Below are positions 1 through 23,890 of a DNA stretch of 24,105 nucleotides, piece by piece (within the stretch, counting starts at the first letter, position 1; each line of letters opens with the position of its first letter). The DNA is taken from IMG/VR virus record IMGVR_UViG_3300017989_005280, positions 1 to 24,105 of that record. One strand, given 5' to 3'. The stretch comes from a virus. The position numbers and the translations under genes were made by a program. The notes under the pieces were generated by a model, which saw only the letters and a list, made by a program, of their open reading frames with translations, made no database searches and was not told the origin of the DNA.

Positions 1-1569
1 GAATTGCATCTGCTTCTGCGTTGTGGTATTAAGACCTTCTTCAACAGCTGAATCATATCTACCGAAAGCTTTGTTATAAAACTGCGGAGACGGATCTTCT
101 TCGATAATCCTTTTTACTTTTCCTGGAGTAAAATTACTTTGTACAATGTTCAACATCAATTTACCAAGTAACTTTTGAGATCGATCTAACTGATCAAAAA
201 GTTTTTGTAGCGTGGTCAGCCCGGCACCCTGGCGCAACATAGCAAGTATACCGGCTTTCTCATCAACAGCTGAACCTAGCAACTCCTCGTTAACACCAGA
301 AATCTCTTGCACTTCACGCGCTAATATTTCAGATATCTGTACAATGGAGGAATCAAACGCTGCGGGTGGTATACGCTCAACATCGGTCATTTGCGCTTCT
401 TGCTTGAGAGCCAAACCTCTACCTTGTCCGCTAAGAAATACATCTTTAGGATTAACAAGAGAATCTTCTTTATACTTCCAACCGGAATTAATCTGACTTT
501 CGAGTATATCAAGCTCAATAGCCTTTCTACGGTTATATAGAAACTGTGCATCTCTCAACCCTCTGACAACCCCTTGAACACGCCAAGGAAAATAAGGTAT
601 TTCAGGTGAATAATACGCAAACACTGGCACAAAAGGATAATTATCGATACCCATCGGATTAGGTCCATTGTACATCACCCTACCTTGTACGACGATCGCA
701 ACGTTAACCGTCGGAACTTCCTGGTCAATAATTGTGACTTGAGGGTAAACCCTTAGAAATTCTTTTAAAGCGTCATCATTATCTACTTTCCACTCGAACG
801 TTTCTCCGGTTTGAGAATCAACCAGTACTTTTTGAGTGCGATAATCTCTGTAGTAATACTCATCGTATGCTAGAAGATTTTTAACTCCGGAATTATAATT
901 TTCTGGCATAAACTGAAATTTATTATCTTTTGTATCGTTCCCTGAAAGACCTGCTATTTCATCTTTATAATCAGGGAGCAGAGAAATGCATTCTGATTTT
1001 GTTAGGAAAGAACGCTTCCAAAGACCCCTACAATCAGACAAATCTTGTTTTCTAAAAAATGGATCAATTAAAAAGCTATTGTAGCTACAATTATCAACTT
1101 TTATATTCCCAGAAACAGGATCAGAACGATAATCTACCCATACCTGTAGTAAATTCATACCTGTTATAAGCGCACCTTCGAATGCATTCGATATTGTATC
1201 GAGTGTGCCTTCTTGCTGATTAATCCACATCATAATTTTTGTAAACTGATCAGCTGTTAATTCGTCGCCGTTCTCAACCGGTACAACTATAGTAGATTTT
1301 CTATTCTTTCGCTGATAACCAGATATCATGTTTTTAACACGTTTTATACGGTTAAAGTTAAATTGTCTTCGCTTATTTAGCGGTAGATTACCATATAGAT
1401 CATTCCACAGGGTTTGATCTCCAGCTTCGAACCTTGTATCTGTATCAGCCTCTGACCAAAAGGCCTGATTGATGGATATCGCCTCACTATAAAAGGCCTC
1501 CATCTGCTCCAAGACCCCTCTATCTTTTGAATCGTAATACTGAGGCCCTATTTGAGGAAATAATGCCAT
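1..1569 (-). CDS. Portal (head-tail connector) protein, P22-like, C-terminus beyond the window
   Basis: My translation of the complement from the ATG at 1567-1569 stays open for 523 codons to the left edge, so the gene is partial. The portal ring forms the DNA entry and exit channel at the special capsid vertex and docks the terminase. Recognisable P22-family features are an N-terminal segment with NRIKRVKNMISGYQRKNR at about residues 80-100, a central DEYYYRDYRTQKVLV and GETFEWKVD strand pair, PYFPWRVQGVVRGLRDAQ, a long helix with NRRKAIELDILESQINSG, and near the edge FGRYDSAVEEG followed by TTTQKQMQF, close to the YDAVVEEG...TPTQR pattern of these portals. An AGGAAGGA ribosome site lies just before the start. 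A portal next to terminase genes is usual, but here an accessory island and groES lie between them. Family assignment is by my recognition of motifs. Confidence 0.9.
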   Translation of the reverse strand, partial: MALFPQIGPQYYDSKDRGVLEQMEAFYSEAISINQAFWSEADTDTRFEAGDQTLWNDLYGNLPLNKRRQFNFNRIKRVKNMISGYQRKNRKSTIVVPVENGDELTADQFTKIMMWINQQEGTLDTISNAFEGALITGMNLLQVWVDYRSDPVSGNIKVDNCSYNSFLIDPFFRKQDLSDCRGLWKRSFLTKSECISLLPDYKDEIAGLSGNDTKDNKFQFMPENYNSGVKNLLAYDEYYYRDYRTQKVLVDSQTGETFEWKVDNDDALKEFLRVYPQVTIIDQEVPTVNVAIVVQGRVMYNGPNPMGIDNYPFVPVFAYYSPEIPYFPWRVQGVVRGLRDAQFLYNRRKAIELDILESQINSGWKYKEDSLVNPKDVFLSGQGRGLALKQEAQMTDVERIPPAAFDSSIVQISEILAREVQEISGVNEELLGSAVDEKAGILAMLRQGAGLTTLQKLFDQLDRSQKLLGKLMLNIVQSNFTPGKVKRIIEEDPSPQFYNKAFGRYDSAVEEGLNTTTQKQMQF

Positions 1570-1902: not shown

Positions 1903-2116
1903 TTTTGCTATCCTCACTATGAGCTGTATAAAATTGCAACCATACTCTATCGATATCGATAAAATGCACATACTTCATAACATATACTGCTAGCCACCAA
2001 TCATAGCCACAATAAGCTTCGAAGAAATATCCATTTGCATATGATTTATTGTCACCTTCTTCCCATGACCATATATTTCCATGCCATTTTTTGAATTTAG
2101 GTAATTTTAAGCTCAT
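1892..2116 (-). CDS. Small aromatic-rich hypothetical protein, second gene of leftward accessory operon
   Basis: A 74-residue protein unusually rich in Trp, Tyr and Phe: KFKKWHGNIWSWEE, YANGYFFEAYCGYDWWLAVY, and a VWLQFYTAHSEDSK tail. Its ATG overlaps the stop of the upstream ribbon-helix-helix-like gene by ATGA (2113-2116), a translational-coupling arrangement. No family is recognised. The aromatic richness suggests a compact beta fold, and the length excludes most enzymes. Overlap on both sides supports that it is a real member of the operon. Confidence 0.6.
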   Translation of the reverse strand: MSLKLPKFKKWHGNIWSWEEGDNKSYANGYFFEAYCGYDWWLAVYVMKYVHFIDIDRVWLQFYTAHSEDSKNDR

Positions 2117-2319
2117 TTTTCCATATCCTTAAACTCTTTTTCGAACAACTCTTCGACAGCCTGGCACAAGATATCAGATTTTGTATCCTTGCTGCCCGCC
2201 ATCACACGAAATGCAAATATTTGATTAAACTTCTTCTCTACTTCCTTTGTCATATACAGCGTAAATTTACCTTTAGGCTCTAAAAGCTCTTTAGGTCGAC
2301 CAATCTTCTTATTTTCCAT
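2113..2319 (-). CDS. Ribbon-helix-helix-like DNA-binding protein (CopG/Arc type), head of leftward accessory operon
   Basis: A 68-residue protein. After a basic N-terminus (KKIGRPKE) comes a short strand-like segment KGKFTLYMT at about residues 16-24. A first helix follows, EVEKKFNQIFAFRVMAG, then a second helix opening with KDTKSDILCQAVEELFEKEF. This strand-helix-helix layout and the size match dimeric RHH repressors, in which the strand pair reads the major groove. Such proteins often head the operon they repress, and here the ATG lies 35 bases from a divergent promoter pair with a GTCAA/TTGAC inverted repeat, a plausible operator. Autoregulation is inference. A CTTCTCCGG complement gives a CCGGAGAAG ribosome site. 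The family call rests on pattern only. Confidence 0.65.
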   Translation of the reverse strand: MENKKIGRPKELLEPKGKFTLYMTKEVEKKFNQIFAFRVMAGSKDTKSDILCQAVEELFEKEFKDMEK

Positions 2320-2353: not shown

Positions 2354-2382
2354 ATAATAACACTATGTAGCCATACAGTCAA
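2354..2382 (-). promoter_or_regulatory. Leftward sigma70-type promoter of the RHH operon
   Basis: On the complement, TTGACT (2377-2382), a 17-base spacer, then TATTAT (2354-2359). It lies 35 bases upstream of the RHH-like gene start. Its -35 box is back to back with that of the rightward promoter at 2390, separated by 7 bases. Confidence 0.75.
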
Positions 2383-2389
2383 GTAGCTG

Positions 2390-2417
2390 TTGACATTATA
2401 TATTATATATATATAAT
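2390..2417 (+). promoter_or_regulatory. Rightward consensus sigma70 promoter of the exported-protein unit
   Basis: TTGACA (2390-2395), a 16-base spacer of nearly pure TA, and TATAAT (2412-2417): both hexamers are perfect consensus. It would give a transcript starting near 2424 with a structured leader of about 145 bases before the gene at 2569. This is the strongest promoter-like sequence I found in the window. Confidence 0.85.
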
Positions 2418-2436
2418 TGTTTATGCTTACTAAGTT

Positions 2437-2470
2437 GGAGCGCCTGCTTAACTCGATTCATAGGCGCTCC
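2437..2470 (+). other. Stable hairpin in the 5' leader of the exported-protein unit
   Basis: GGAGCGCCT (2437-2445) pairs perfectly with AGGCGCTCC (2462-2470) around a 16-base loop. It begins about 13 bases after the predicted transcription start. It is not followed by a T-run, so it is more likely a 5' stabilising stem, a protein-binding site or part of a small RNA than a terminator. Further structure is possible downstream at the GTGCGCAC palindrome near 2491-2498. Confidence 0.5.
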
Positions 2471-2568
2471 TTCTAGAAGTTAGTACATTGTGCGCACGAT
2501 GTTTTGCAAGGAGAGCGTAACGGATACGCAAGTAGATGTATTTTTAACTTCATTACGGGAGGATTCCT

Positions 2569-3045
2569 ATGAAACGTATTGTATTATTAAGTGTATTTTT
2601 ACTGGTATCAGCACCGGCCATGGCCATGATGATGCAAGAGGAGCAACAGCAATCTAGCTCTATAGAGTTTGATTTTGCAAATTCCCCTGCAGCTAAGATG
2701 CTATCGGCGCCATTTAAGATAGCTTGGTCTGCGGTTAAGACAACATGTTTACTTACAGGTGATTTATATCGATGGGCTACAAAACCAACACCACCAGCGC
2801 CACCCAAAAAGCCTAACACACCTAATACACCATCGATAGAAGACGTGCTGGGAGCTAACAAAGCGCAAATGGATAAGGTGCAAGCGCAGGTCGCGGCATC
2901 CGGAATGCTTGCTCGAGCTACATCAGCTAGATATACTGCTGATAACGCAGGTGCCGAGCTTATAAGAAGAGGTACTGTAAAAAGAGGCATGCGTGAAATT
3001 TGGAAACAAAAACCAATAAGTAAACGCGTAGGTCTACGAAAATAA
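2569..3045 (+). CDS. Exported accessory protein with Sec signal peptide
   Basis: A 158-residue protein starting at an ATG preceded by GGGAGG. It has a textbook signal peptide: KR, a hydrophobic IVLLSVFLLVSAP core and an AMA cleavage site at about residue 19. The mature part begins with a Met/Gln/Glu-rich stretch, has a proline-rich TPPAPPKKPNTPNTP linker at about residues 74-88, and ends in a helical, basic tail. No enzyme motif is recognised. It is transcribed against the surrounding packaging genes from a consensus promoter, together with a second exported protein, and the pair ends in an intrinsic terminator. This is the arrangement of a phage moron, a self-contained gene cassette often acting on the host cell envelope. 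The specific role is unknown. Confidence 0.75.
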   Translation: MKRIVLLSVFLLVSAPAMAMMMQEEQQQSSSIEFDFANSPAAKMLSAPFKIAWSAVKTTCLLTGDLYRWATKPTPPAPPKKPNTPNTPSIEDVLGANKAQMDKVQAQVAASGMLARATSARYTADNAGAELIRRGTVKRGMREIWKQKPISKRVGLRK

Positions 3046-3055
3046 AAGAACCGCT

Positions 3056-3078
3056 GGGGCTGTCGTGTTGGCAGCTCC
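3056..3078 (+). other. Intercistronic hairpin between the two exported-protein genes
   Basis: GGGGCTGTC (3056-3064) and GGCAGCTCC (3070-3078) form a 9-bp stem, including two G-U pairs, with a 5-base GTGTT loop. It lies 11 bases after the first gene's stop. No T-run follows, so partial termination, processing or protection of the upstream message are all possible. Confidence 0.45.
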
Positions 3079-3108
3079 GCTTTAACCCCTTAAATGAAAG
3101 GTTATATT

Positions 3109-3621
3109 ATGAAGAAGCTATTACTAACGTTACTAGTAAGTGCCAATATTGGCGCATCAGTTGTGCCAACTCGCGCAACACTAGACCCTAAACAATCACC
3201 AACAGTGTTTTTCAGCAAGGAAAACAAGGAAAAGCTCTATAGAGCACGTGAAAGAATGAGAAAAGCTGTAGAGAAACTAGATAACTTGCTAGCTAAAACC
3301 ACCTGTCCTACATGTCTAGTATACCTAAAAGCAATAAGAGAATGCGTCGCAAACATATGTAACTGTGTTCATGCGAGATATGAATTCTTTAGAGTATACT
3401 CAGACACCGCAAGAAGTAATGTTATAACTAGAACATCTCTATGGAATTTTAAAGTAACAGCAAAACGCAACTTTCTCGAGATTAATGCTATGCTTAATCT
3501 CGAAGAAAAAACTGCGTTTGATAAGTTAGACTACATCGTGAGAAATGGAAAAGATGTAGAACCTGGCATAATCGCACGAATCCAGAGAGCGATAAAACGC
3601 GCTTGGAGATATATCAAATAA
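3109..3621 (+). CDS. Second exported accessory protein, helical, with cysteine cluster
   Basis: A 170-residue protein. I chose the ATG at 3109 (MKKLLLTLLVSANIGASV) over the in-frame ATG at 3094, because AAAGG lies 8 bases before it and the product then starts with a clean signal peptide; cleavage is probably near residue 17-19. The mature protein is highly helical and basic (YRARERMRKAVEKLDNLL). It has a cysteine cluster at about residues 67-88 (CPTC, then ECVANICNC) that could form disulphides after export or bind metal. It has no recognised domain. It shares a transcript with the gene at 2569 and is followed 22 bases later by a strong terminator. Confidence 0.7.
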   Translation: MKKLLLTLLVSANIGASVVPTRATLDPKQSPTVFFSKENKEKLYRARERMRKAVEKLDNLLAKTTCPTCLVYLKAIRECVANICNCVHARYEFFRVYSDTARSNVITRTSLWNFKVTAKRNFLEINAMLNLEEKTAFDKLDYIVRNGKDVEPGIIARIQRAIKRAWRYIK

Positions 3622-3643
3622 TATCGCATACTATTTTGCTTTG

Positions 3644-3664
3644 GGGTCCTAACGGGCCCTTTTT
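3644..3664 (+). terminator. Intrinsic terminator of the exported-protein unit
   Basis: GGGTCC (3644-3649), loop TAAC, GGGCCC (3654-3659), then TTTTT (3660-3664). This is a GC-rich stem with a G-U pair followed by a U-tract. It closes the rightward unit before the leftward groES gene. Confidence 0.8.
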
Positions 3665-3752
3665 CCGTGTTCAAAGCTTTACAATTAAGTATAATCTGTA
3701 TAAAATTTTATGCGATAGTATCTCAATAATCATTACAACCGAGAAGAATTAT

Positions 3753-4043
3753 TTATTGTACAATTCCTACAATTTCATCTTCACGTAATATTAGATGATC
3801 GCTATCAAACGGCAGGCCTGCATGCTTGTTGTATAAAATTTGGTCACCAGTTTTTACCTCCAACGGTATTAATTCGTGGCCATTTGTTTTTCTGCCTTTT
3901 CCAACACTTATTACTATCCCTACCTTAAGGCCGGTGGCCATATCAGCAGCACTTTCAGGAATAATTATGCCACCTGCAGTCTTATCTTCCTCTGCAACTT
4001 TTTTAATTAAAACTTTATCGTACAGCGGGGTTAACGTTTTCAT
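3753..4043 (-). CDS. groES: Co-chaperonin GroES (Cpn10)
   Basis: At 96 residues it has the usual length of GroES. GroES forms a seven-membered cap on GroEL and closes the folding chamber. The family signature is clear: PLYDKVLIKK at residues 6-15, a mobile loop around residues 17-32 with TAGGIIIPESA (the GGI(V/I)(L/I) triplet that docks on GroEL), VGIVISVGKGR, then VKTGDQILYNKHAG and the C-terminal LREDEIVGIVQ. AAGGAGT precedes the ATG. No groEL is in the window, so it would work with the host GroEL, as T4 gp31 does for the T4 capsid protein. It lies 50 bases downstream of terL, within the packaging gene group, which fits a role in folding phage capsid or other virion proteins. It could alternatively be a captured host copy. 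Confidence 0.93.
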   Translation of the reverse strand: MKTLTPLYDKVLIKKVAEEDKTAGGIIIPESAADMATGLKVGIVISVGKGRKTNGHELIPLEVKTGDQILYNKHAGLPFDSDHLILREDEIVGIVQ

Positions 4044-4093: not shown

Positions 4094-5458
4094 TTAATAT
4101 CCAGGTAAATCATCTCTAAAGACAGCAGGCATATGGCTCTGATCGCCATACATCGCTTCTCTGTAACGTTTCTCTAATTCCTCTGGCGACGTGCCATCTT
4201 TAACTTTATTTAGCGATACAGCCAAATATCGCATTGCGTCTGCAAAATTTGAAAATACATCGTGAAACGGCTTCTCTTTGTACACTTTTCTTTTGCTATC
4301 ATACTCTTGACGGTAATTCTCAAGCGCCTTGATAAGCGGTTCACAACGTAAGGAATCGAACCACATAAGGGGAAGCTTAGATCTTACAGCCTCAATTCCA
4401 TCCATGATTCCAATTTTGTCAGCGACTGTAAAGGTGACACCCAACCTTCGAGCTTTTTCCCAGCGCGTAATTCCCGTACTAAATTCCATGTTCCGAATAT
4501 CATGAGGACCAATATGCTTCCCATACGTATAATCCTTCGCCTTAAGGATCTTGATATAATGCTCCAAACCTTCTTTATTCTTCTCGTAACAATCGATTAT
4601 CTTGATAGCTTGTCCCTCAATCTGGAAGAAGATAATAGACGTCATATCTCTAACGCCCAAATCCCATGCTGTATGTACTTTCCTTGTCGGATCCCATGGT
4701 ACATGGCCAATCTGATTTTTAAGCTTAAGCTGATCAATATACTTGGTGTAATACGAACCTTCAACACCCATATCAAACGACGTCCAGTACTCTTGTAACT
4801 GAAGATCTTCAGACATCTCACCAGTTCTACGATCTAATGCCAATTTTTCATGAGAAACATGCTTGGTATCATCAACCGTTAACTTAGAAACATACCAAAT
4901 ATCAGGATTCTCAAGCGCAACGTTATACATGTCATACATAAAGTTCTTGCCTCTGGGAGTAGAAACAACTAAGGCCCACCCATCTGATACAGATAGAATG
5001 GGCAAAGAAAGAGAATACGATTGAGGTTCACTGACTGCAAATTCTGAAAATACCATACCGTGCGCGTTAGTACCGATCATAGATTTATCAAACTTATCAG
5101 ATCCAACTATCTGAAAAAGAGATCCATTCTTAAGCTTTATACGCATGAGTTGTTCATTTTTAGATTCAACTAACTCTTTTGGCAGATAATCTAGGATTCT
5201 ATCTCCGTCAATAGTAAGTGCATCCCAGAGAATTCTTCTTCCTAAAGCAAAAGTAGGAAATACATAAAATATCACACATGTTTTACGTAACAATTGCTGT
5301 ATGCATATGTTCCAAGCGCACAAATCCTTTCCACTCCTTCGGGGCCACACCGCCATAACTTTCTTAAAGTTTAGGTTGAATATAGCGTCAAATAAACACT
5401 CCTGGTACCCTCTTGGAACAAACTTATCCAGTCGTATCTCGAGTGGCTTTTCTATCAT
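4094..5458 (-). CDS. terL: Terminase large subunit (packaging ATPase and nuclease)
   Basis: The motor that drives DNA into the procapsid and cuts concatemers. From the chosen Met start the protein has 454 residues. The ATPase domain has Walker A WPRRSGKD (about 38-45), Walker B MVFSEF (135-140) and a coupling motif VSTPRGKN (165-172). The nuclease domain has three acidic positions expected for an RNase H-fold terminase: D266 in WDLG, D319 in GPHD and D407 in FADAMRY. I chose the ATG at 5456-5458, with GAGAG before it, over a TTG 16 codons upstream that lacks a ribosome site. With this start the gene overlaps the small gene upstream by 35 bases. It follows terS and two small genes and precedes groES. 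Confidence 0.95.
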   Translation of the reverse strand: MIEKPLEIRLDKFVPRGYQECLFDAIFNLNFKKVMAVWPRRSGKDLCAWNICIQQLLRKTCVIFYVFPTFALGRRILWDALTIDGDRILDYLPKELVESKNEQLMRIKLKNGSLFQIVGSDKFDKSMIGTNAHGMVFSEFAVSEPQSYSLSLPILSVSDGWALVVSTPRGKNFMYDMYNVALENPDIWYVSKLTVDDTKHVSHEKLALDRRTGEMSEDLQLQEYWTSFDMGVEGSYYTKYIDQLKLKNQIGHVPWDPTRKVHTAWDLGVRDMTSIIFFQIEGQAIKIIDCYEKNKEGLEHYIKILKAKDYTYGKHIGPHDIRNMEFSTGITRWEKARRLGVTFTVADKIGIMDGIEAVRSKLPLMWFDSLRCEPLIKALENYRQEYDSKRKVYKEKPFHDVFSNFADAMRYLAVSLNKVKDGTSPEELEKRYREAMYGDQSHMPAVFRDDLPGY

Positions 5459-5630
5459 ATCTCTCTTTAGCTCTTTTAGTTGCTTCTTGCCGCGCAACTT
5501 CCTCAATTGTTTTTTTTACTTCTTTGCGTATTTTTTGCCATTCCTTCTTATCGTACATTGGTCCATAAGATCCTGAAAGAGGGAAAATGAGAGTTGATAC
5601 TGCTATGAGTATCTTAACTTTCTTTTGCAT
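5424..5630 (-). CDS. Small exported or membrane-anchored protein between terS and terL, possible lysis component
   Basis: 68 residues: a basic start (MQKKVK), a hydrophobic stretch ILIAVSTLIFPLSG, then a strongly charged coiled-coil-like tail (KEWQKIRKEVKKTIEEVARQEATKRAKERY). The N-terminus is a signal peptide or anchor; there is no cysteine, so it is not a lipoprotein like Rz1. It overlaps the membrane protein gene upstream by 17 bases and terL by 35. Pairs of small overlapping membrane genes near packaging genes are often holins or spanins, but no diagnostic residue settles that here. Confidence 0.55.
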   Translation of the reverse strand: MQKKVKILIAVSTLIFPLSGSYGPMYDKKEWQKIRKEVKKTIEEVARQEATKRAKERYDRKATRDTTG

Positions 5631-8836: not shown

Positions 8837-9199
8837 ATGCTTAAAGCAATAATATTCATTGGCGTTGCAGTACTAGCTATAGCCGCTAACTGCAATGCCA
8901 TGAAACGAAATATAGGATGGGATGAAGAAGACTTTCGTAATGCTAGAGTTATAGCAGAAAGAACACAAACACCTCCACCACCAAAAACATTACCTGCATC
9001 AGCAACTCGTAAAAAAGTATTAACAGAGTGGGGAAACGAAGAAGCACAATTTGCATGTCTCAAAGTACTTAATAGAATACGTGACGAAGAGAGACGCAAG
9101 CTTGACCACTCACGCATGCTTGCTAAAAAAATAATGGATACAATAGAAAAAAGAAAAAAAGCTCACAAAGAACGAAATACATTAGAATGGGATTACTAG
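8837..9199 (+). CDS. Small exported protein with basic helical mature part
   Basis: 120 residues from the ATG at 8837, preceded by AGAGGA. A longer in-frame start at 8777 would hide the signal peptide and lacks a ribosome site. MLKAIIFIGVAVLAIAANCNA is a Sec signal peptide with cleavage near residue 21. The mature part has a proline segment (TPPPPKTLP) and a long charged helix rich in Arg, Lys and Glu. It is similar in design to the exported protein at 2569: a signal peptide, a short proline-rich linker and a basic tail. It is unusual for a protein sitting directly before a recombination gene. Confidence 0.65.
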   Translation: MLKAIIFIGVAVLAIAANCNAMKRNIGWDEEDFRNARVIAERTQTPPPPKTLPASATRKKVLTEWGNEEAQFACLKVLNRIRDEERRKLDHSRMLAKKIMDTIEKRKKAHKERNTLEWDY

Positions 9200-20375: not shown

Positions 20376-20531
20376 ATGCCTAGAAAAGGGCGAAAAAGAC
20401 TTTCAATTGATTTGCCAACCGTTATATATAACCAACTTAACCTATTAGCACAACGAAGAAATATAACATTAACAAGGTTAATAATACGCTTAATAATAAC
20501 AGCAATGCAAAGAGAGCGAGAATTAGAGTGA
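20376..20531 (+). CDS. Ribbon-helix-helix DNA-binding protein (Arc/CopG type)
   Basis: 51 residues, read directly: MPRKGRKRLSIDLPTVIYNQ, then LNLLAQRRNITLTRLI and a second helix ending QRERELE. KRLSIDLP is the DNA-contacting strand, TVIYNQLNLLAQRRN helix A, and TLTRLIIRLIITAMQRE helix B: a minimal Arc-like dimer. AAAGGTG precedes the ATG. Transcribed against the structural genes with its own promoter, it probably acts as a small repressor, perhaps of itself or of the adjacent leftward fibre promoter; the target is unknown. It resembles the RHH-like protein at 2113 in class but not in sequence. Confidence 0.72.
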   Translation: MPRKGRKRLSIDLPTVIYNQLNLLAQRRNITLTRLIIRLIITAMQRERELE

Positions 20532-23225: not shown

Positions 23226-23771
23226 ATGGCAGTCCAAGAAAGAATAGGCGCTTTTGTCCCTACAACAGAAGAATTTGAAATTGAGAACATAGAAGATATT
23301 AATATTAATAGCCCTGAATTTAGAGATTTCTTAATAAGGCTCCGTCTTATGCTTAATAACCATGCAAACACTTTAAATATTAAAGATACTGGCATATATG
23401 ATCCGCAAGAATTTGTTAACGGACAAGTATGGTTTCCAGACCCAACATTAGGAAGTAGCACTGCACAAAAACCTGTAGAGAGACAAGTATATAGAACTGT
23501 AGTTAACTTTGGTGCGCTCACAAATACCGCTACAAAAACGGTAGCTCACAATATTACATTTCCGACAATAAGCACACTAACAGCAACGCGCATATATGGA
23601 GCATCAACAGACCCAGTAGCACAAATACAGATCCCTCTTCCATATTCATCTCCAACATTAGTTAATAATATAGAACTTTATTTTAACGCAACAAATGTAG
23701 TAATCACTACAGGCGCAAACTATTCAGCGTATACTACAACATATATTGTGCTAGAATATATAAAAGAATAA
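23226..23771 (+). CDS. Beta-rich candidate virion protein on the opposite strand
   Basis: 181 residues, AAGG before the ATG. An acidic helical N-terminus (FEIENIEDININSPEFRDFL then RLRLMLNNHANTLN) precedes a beta-rich part: QKPVERQVYRTVVNFGAL, TNTATKTVAHNITFPTIST, RIYGASTDPVAQIQIPLPY, NNIELYFNATNVVITTGANY and TTTYIVLEYIKE. I recognise the V-F-G-L-N...KTVAHNI...ATRIYGAS layout from small structural or tail-associated proteins of environmental phages; the exact role is unknown. It runs against the neighbouring virion genes with its own promoter, and ends before a long hairpin. Confidence 0.68.
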   Translation: MAVQERIGAFVPTTEEFEIENIEDININSPEFRDFLIRLRLMLNNHANTLNIKDTGIYDPQEFVNGQVWFPDPTLGSSTAQKPVERQVYRTVVNFGALTNTATKTVAHNITFPTISTLTATRIYGASTDPVAQIQIPLPYSSPTLVNNIELYFNATNVVITTGANYSAYTTTYIVLEYIKE

Positions 23772-23831
23772 ACTACTAAAGAAGTTATTAGTACTACTGC
23801 TAGTGTGCTTAGTTCATTAGTGGCTTCATTA

Positions 23832-23890
23832 CTCTCCTTTTTTGCGAGAAGCTGTGATTTTTTGTCACAGCTTCTCGTATTAAAGGAGAG
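23832..23890. terminator. Long two-part hairpin between converging genes, likely bidirectional terminator
   Basis: The inner stem CGAGAAGCTGTGA (23845-23857) pairs perfectly over 13 bp with TCACAGCTTCTCG (23865-23877) around a 7-base TTTTTTG loop. An outer stem CTCTCCTTT (23832-23840) pairs with AAAGGAGAG (23882-23890), separated from the inner by a small internal loop. Neither direction has a long U-tract after the inner stem, but leftward or rightward stop signals are possible here because genes converge from both sides (ends at 23771 and 23899). Confidence 0.6.

What the first reader, a model, noticed from the sequence alone, without database searches (positions are those of the whole stretch)
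2390..3664. Moron-like cassette of two exported proteins inserted between portal and groES/terminase
Seen: a perfect consensus promoter, a structured leader, two signal-peptide proteins and an intrinsic terminator form a self-contained unit running against the packaging genes. This is the known design of phage morons, which often alter the host envelope or protect against other phages. Neither product has a domain I recognise, so the effect is new or in an uncharacterised family. A third exported protein of similar design lies in the early operon at 8837.
Basis: partly seen in the sequence, partly recalled or inferred. Interest (0 to 1): 0.62.

Follow-up and report, generated by a model that had tools for sequence, protein, structure and literature searches.

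The report
Swappable exported-protein cassette in phage
Between its DNA-packaging genes this uncultured phage carries a small backwards-facing gene unit, with its own strong start and stop signals, that makes two secreted proteins of unknown function; related phages keep the start switch and a neighbouring control-like gene but carry different genes behind it, so the site looks like a slot for interchangeable cargo.

Summary
In detail: a 12/12 sigma-70 promoter (0.04 expected by chance in the window), a structured leader, two genes with signal peptides and an intrinsic terminator, antisense to the portal/terL cluster. The block is variable, as predicted. The nearest relative keeps promoter, leader and gene 1 but lacks gene 2; the gap lies in an almost identical tract, so the gain or loss was recent. 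A distant relative has a gene-1 homologue at the same place with a different exported partner. Over 74 non-redundant relatives the terL-portal interval runs from 72 to 6,979 bp and is enriched for exported genes (11.4% vs 5.0%, p=1.6e-4). The cassette is therefore probably a regulated cargo slot, not an isolated insertion. No integrase or close prophage relative was found, so a lysogeny role lacks support. The proteins have no detectable family. Envelope modification or superinfection exclusion is the likeliest role, by inference only. New variant of a known kind (phage accessory cassette).

The parts
2390..2417 (+). cassette promoter, TTGACA-N16-TATAAT
   Evidence: also perfect in the relative L002/L003
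2354..2382 (-). divergent promoter of the RHH-like gene, TTGACT-N17-TATTAT
2377..2395 (.). inverted repeat AGTCAA-N7-TTGACA made by the two -35 boxes; possible shared operator (inferred)
   Evidence: same layout in L003, L008, L098
2424..2568 (+). structured 5' leader, 90% identical in the relative against 74% for gene 1
2437..2470 (+). leader hairpin 1, 10 bp, with one compensatory pair change
2485..2502 (+). leader hairpin 2 (palindrome), pair-preserving changes
2515..2529 (+). leader hairpin 3, 5 bp
2569..3045 (+). gene 1: exported 158-aa protein; signal peptide, PFK-containing helix, Pro-rich linker, basic C-terminus
3053..3080 (+). intercistronic hairpin
   Evidence: z -2.05; an analogous hairpin in L098 (z -4.2)
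3054..3648 (.). segment present here and absent in L002; contains gene 2
3109..3621 (+). gene 2: exported 170-aa protein, predicted helical bundle with five cysteines; no homologue found
3643..3665 (+). intrinsic terminator
2113..2319 (-). 68-aa RHH-like protein, divergently transcribed from the cassette
   Evidence: weak family hits
3753..4043 (-). groES (context)
4094..5506 (-). terL (context)
1..1569 (-). portal (context, cut by the window end)

Best explanation
The feature is an accessory cargo cassette in a lytic-looking, P22-portal-type phage of unknown host. SHOWN by sequence: a consensus sigma-70-type promoter, conserved leader hairpins, gene 1 with or without a partner gene, and a terminator, placed antisense in the hypervariable terL-portal interval, with the promoter back-to-back with that of an RHH-like gene. 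INFERRED: host RNA polymerase transcribes the cassette soon after DNA entry; the 5' hairpins stabilise or tune the mRNA; the RHH-like protein binds the shared -35 region and shuts the cassette down, probably also its own operon. The products leave the cytoplasm by Sec. Gene 1 attaches to a membrane through its PFK helix, with a Pro-rich linker and basic tail in the periplasm; gene 2 is a soluble, disulphide-containing helical protein. The likeliest purpose is to change the envelope of the infected cell, first candidate blocking superinfection by competing phages, which would explain fast change and partner swapping. Architecture and variability are about 0.85 likely to be right, RHH control about 0.5, superinfection exclusion or envelope modification about 0.35.
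For: Promoter, leader and terminator. Six stem substitutions between two genomes all keep pairing, permutation p=0.0027. Gene 1 dS about 1.0 and dN about 0.33, so it is selected as protein, yet it changes fast (59% aa identity) beside 88-100% for RHH, groES, terL and portal. Gene 2 was gained or lost inside a near-identical tract: 76 bp exact on the left, 2 mismatches in 150 bp on the right. L098: gene-1 homologue antisense at the same site behind a different exported gene. Interval 72-6,979 bp, exported genes enriched, 74 representatives. Back-to-back promoters in W, L003, L008 and L098, with L008 carrying unrelated cargo.
Against: No transcription or export data. The RHH assignment is weak (Pfam RHH_1 E=0.011 in 2 of 7 members; PHROG repressor E=0.01). 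Two RHH relatives (L006, L154) lack a divergent cassette, and L116 shows only a weak divergent promoter. Gene 1 is known from three genomes and gene 2 from one. Fold searches give nothing specific. Exported phage proteins with quite different roles would look the same.
Confidence: 0.5

Rival explanations
1. The exported proteins act in lysis: an antiholin, a lysis-inhibition factor or an envelope-disruption helper, made from a separate promoter so that lysis timing is set apart from the late operon.
For: No lysis gene was recognised among the window proteins that I scanned. Gene 1 has a membrane-prone helix, and gene 2 is a helical exported protein like known antiholin periplasmic domains (from memory).
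Against: Gene 2 is missing in the nearest relative, and the site holds unrelated genes in others, which is odd for a core lysis function. Gene 1 of the window has no lipobox, so it is not an Rz1-type spanin.
Confidence: 0.15
2. A classic moron that serves a prophage: made in the lysogen to change or protect the host.
For: Own promoter and terminator, antisense in the late region, variable; the same layout as described for prophage accessory loci (PMC7067206).
Against: No tyrosine or serine integrase in 11 and 12 related records of up to 42.6 kb; best terL identity in 84,980 species genomes about 41%. The records may be incomplete.
Confidence: 0.12
3. Exported factors that act beyond the bacterium, for example on a eukaryotic cell if the host bacterium lives inside one.
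For: Many small signal-peptide genes in this lineage. Signal peptides ending ..AM resemble those of some intracellular bacteria (memory only).
Against: The host is unknown and no eukaryote-like domain was found.
Confidence: 0.08
4. Orphan ORFs of little or no function at a recombination hot spot.
For: Gene 2 is in one genome only and has near-neutral codon usage. Hot spots gather passengers.
Against: Gene 1 shows purifying selection, and the leader keeps its pairing. The promoter architecture is kept across diverged genomes.
Confidence: 0.13

Closest known systems
Phage morons (Hendrix type), as described in PMC2147016 and PMC7067206
   Same: Extra genes with own promoter and terminator, antisense to the late genes, absent or different in relatives.
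   Different: Back-to-back promoter with a conserved RHH-like gene; no sign of lysogeny; partners swapped behind a kept leader and gene 1.
Promoter early stem-loop (PeSL) shuffling cassettes of T4-like phages (Arbiol 2010; Comeau 2014, cited in PMC4503421)
   Same: Lytic phage; early-type promoter plus stem-loops bordering interchangeable ORFan modules.
   Different: A single site in a podovirus-like genome; the promoter is paired with that of a regulator-like gene. The repeated PeSL motif was not tested, and the one original paper that I looked up was not held.
T4 Spackle (gp61.3), PMC7677548
   Same: Exported small helical protein with cysteines, made by a lytic phage, there from an early gene.
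   Different: No sequence or specific fold match to gene 1 or gene 2; the target here is unknown.

Membership tests
Phage moron | own promoter and transcription terminator | tested here: met
   (sequence level only)
Phage moron | inserted between genes that are neighbours in relatives; comes and goes | tested here: met
Phage moron | foreign base composition | tested here: inconclusive
   GC 0.417 against 0.397 for the window; gene 2 0.378 with near-neutral codon score
Phage moron | expressed from a prophage and dispensable for lytic growth | tested here: inconclusive
   no integrase in related records; expression not testable
T4-type PeSL cassette | shared promoter-plus-stem-loop motif repeated between shuffled modules | not tested
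   only the single hot-spot site was examined
Ribbon-helix-helix regulator (2113-2319) | RHH domain by profile | tested here: inconclusive
   Pfam RHH_1 E=0.011 in 2 of 7 members, PHROG repressor E=0.01, no significant PDB match
Superinfection-exclusion periplasmic proteins (Spackle type) | sequence or fold relation | tested here: inconclusive
   no family hit; helical bundle, no significant fold match
Superinfection-exclusion periplasmic proteins (Spackle type) | blocks secondary phage infection | not testable with these tools
   needs experiment

The most novel reading that the evidence does not exclude
The terL-portal junction of this uncultured lytic phage lineage holds a dedicated cargo slot: a conserved divergent promoter controlled by an RHH-type switch, behind which unrelated gene sets, often secreted proteins, are exchanged while promoter and regulator stay, giving non-integrating phages a regulated counterpart of prophage morons.
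Probability: 0.35. Interest if true: 0.55.

Novelty: new variant of a known kind. Interest (0 to 1): 0.38.

Why it matters
Morons are mostly discussed for prophages. A kept promoter-regulator pair with exchangeable exported cargo in a phage lineage without detectable integrases would show how lytic phages carry and control envelope-acting genes. It also gives a fixed place, between terL and portal, to mine for new secreted phage proteins.

Tried and rejected
Family searches with both proteins (Pfam, PHROGs, NCBIfam) and tblastn against 50,697 phage records: no homologue. Gene 2 against IMG/VR: none. Gene-1 alignment search: no new member. AF2 of gene 1 (pLDDT 57) was too poor to search. Gene 2 model (pLDDT 68): fold hits to PMEI, maquette and other helical bundles at E 0.03 or worse; Z 9-11 is common for helical bundles, so no family is claimed. 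Spackle and RI antiholins were not in the listed rows, which excludes nothing. A coding role of the leader ORF (GTG 2490) was rejected: no Shine-Dalgarno seen, no coding signal in its codon score, and most of its few codon changes are non-synonymous. Rfam: nothing at the cassette. Portal scan of bacterial genomes: nothing. Literature search for a Dependentiae link: nothing useful; that host idea rests on memory only.

Full report
OBSERVATION. The unit is present as described. The promoter at 2390-2417 matches the sigma-70 consensus at all 12 positions with a 16-bp spacer; such a match is expected 0.04 times in shuffles of the whole window. Leader 2424-2568, gene 1 (2569-3045), gene 2 (3109-3621) and terminator (3643-3660 plus T-run) follow on the + strand. 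Portal (P22-type, Pfam E 5e-62), groES and terL are on the - strand. The window is a 24,105-base virus record.

RELATIVES. Gene 1 has one close homologue, in IMGVR_UViG_3300017989_000239 (L002/L003, 59% identity), and one distant one in L098 (30-34%). Gene 2 has none in the sets searched. terL finds 46 related contigs with a single query and many more with an alignment. The best terL identity in 84,980 bacterial and archaeal species genomes is about 41%, and in deposited phages 42%.

VARIABILITY. In L002 the order is promoter, leader, gene 1, terminator; gene 2 is missing. The 76 bp left of the gap are identical and the right side has two mismatches in 150 bp, while synonymous divergence in the RHH gene and in most of gene 1 is about 1 or more, so the gain or loss of gene 2 happened in a recently shared tract. 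In L098 the gene-1 homologue is second in an antisense pair; the first gene is a different exported, Cys/His-rich protein of 122 aa. Across 95 contigs, collapsed to 74 representatives, the terL-portal interval runs from 72 to 6,979 bp; 15 have an antisense ORF of 60 aa or more and 5 an antisense exported gene (L003, L042, L112, L116, L165); exported genes are 32 of 280 inside against 72 of 1,437 short genes outside, p=1.6e-4. The signal-peptide call is a home-made heuristic.

LEADER. It is 90% identical between window and L002, above gene 1 (74%). All six substitutions in the stems of three hairpins keep pairing (p=0.0027; one double compensatory change). Hairpin 1 gives z -3.8 and -4.0 in the two genomes; it is not significant in L098 or L008. 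With two related sequences this is moderate evidence for RNA structure.

DIVERGENT REGULATOR. The 68-aa gene at 2113-2319 is transcribed away from the cassette. Its promoter's -35 box lies 7 bp from that of the cassette. The same back-to-back TGTCAA-N-TTGAC layout, a few bases apart, is present in L003, L098 (37% RHH identity) and L008 (46-49%), where the cassette holds several unrelated genes. L005 has divergent ORFs and promoters in another layout; L116 has divergent ORFs, one of them exported, but a weak promoter; L006 and L154 have no divergent cassette. The family resemblance to ribbon-helix-helix proteins is weak. Control of the cassette is therefore an inference from layout.

PROTEINS. 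Gene 1: signal peptide, a PFK-containing hydrophobic helix kept in three homologues, a Pro-rich linker, basic C-terminus; dN about 0.33, dS about 1.0, with residues 20-70 changing fastest. Gene 2: signal peptide, helical bundle, five cysteines, net charge about +15. No fold match is specific. The 8837 protein shares a W-D-E-E-x-F-x-x-A-R-like motif with the exported protein at 5424-5630 and with proteins of L005, L006 and L116: 6 matches against 0.2 expected, but the motif was chosen after looking, and two of the six are orthologues.

LIFESTYLE. No Phage_integrase (11 records) or Resolvase (12 records) match. A lytic cycle is likely but not proven, since records may be fragments.

VERDICT. Function stays inferred; envelope modification or superinfection exclusion is the leading guess.

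Noticed in passing
L003:8783-11245, also L009, L011, L038, L042, L045: terL reading frames are enlarged; in L003 an intein-like insertion (CLSGDTHI...VVHN) interrupts the WPRR-GKD ATPase motif.
   Followed up: no
window 5424-5630 (-) and 8837-9199 (+): Two further exported small proteins share a W-D-E-E-x-F-x-x-A-R-like motif with proteins of L005, L006 and L116.
   Followed up: partly
window 20376-20531 (+) and 23226-23771 (+): Two more antisense ORFs in the late region, 93-94% conserved in L173, one of them RHH-like by eye.
   Followed up: no
window 23763-23882 (+): Rfam rli61 match at E=0.0049, below the gathering score; probably chance or a terminator-like hairpin.
   Followed up: no
window 2978-3053: 76 bp identical to L002 although most of gene 1 upstream is about 60-73% identical: recombination tract or DNA-level constraint.
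   Followed up: partly
L042:12362-13830, L165:7323-7961, L112:12893-14959: Antisense ORFs at the same hot spot include exported proteins of 104-275 aa; those scanned have no Pfam match beyond a weak chance hit.
   Followed up: partly
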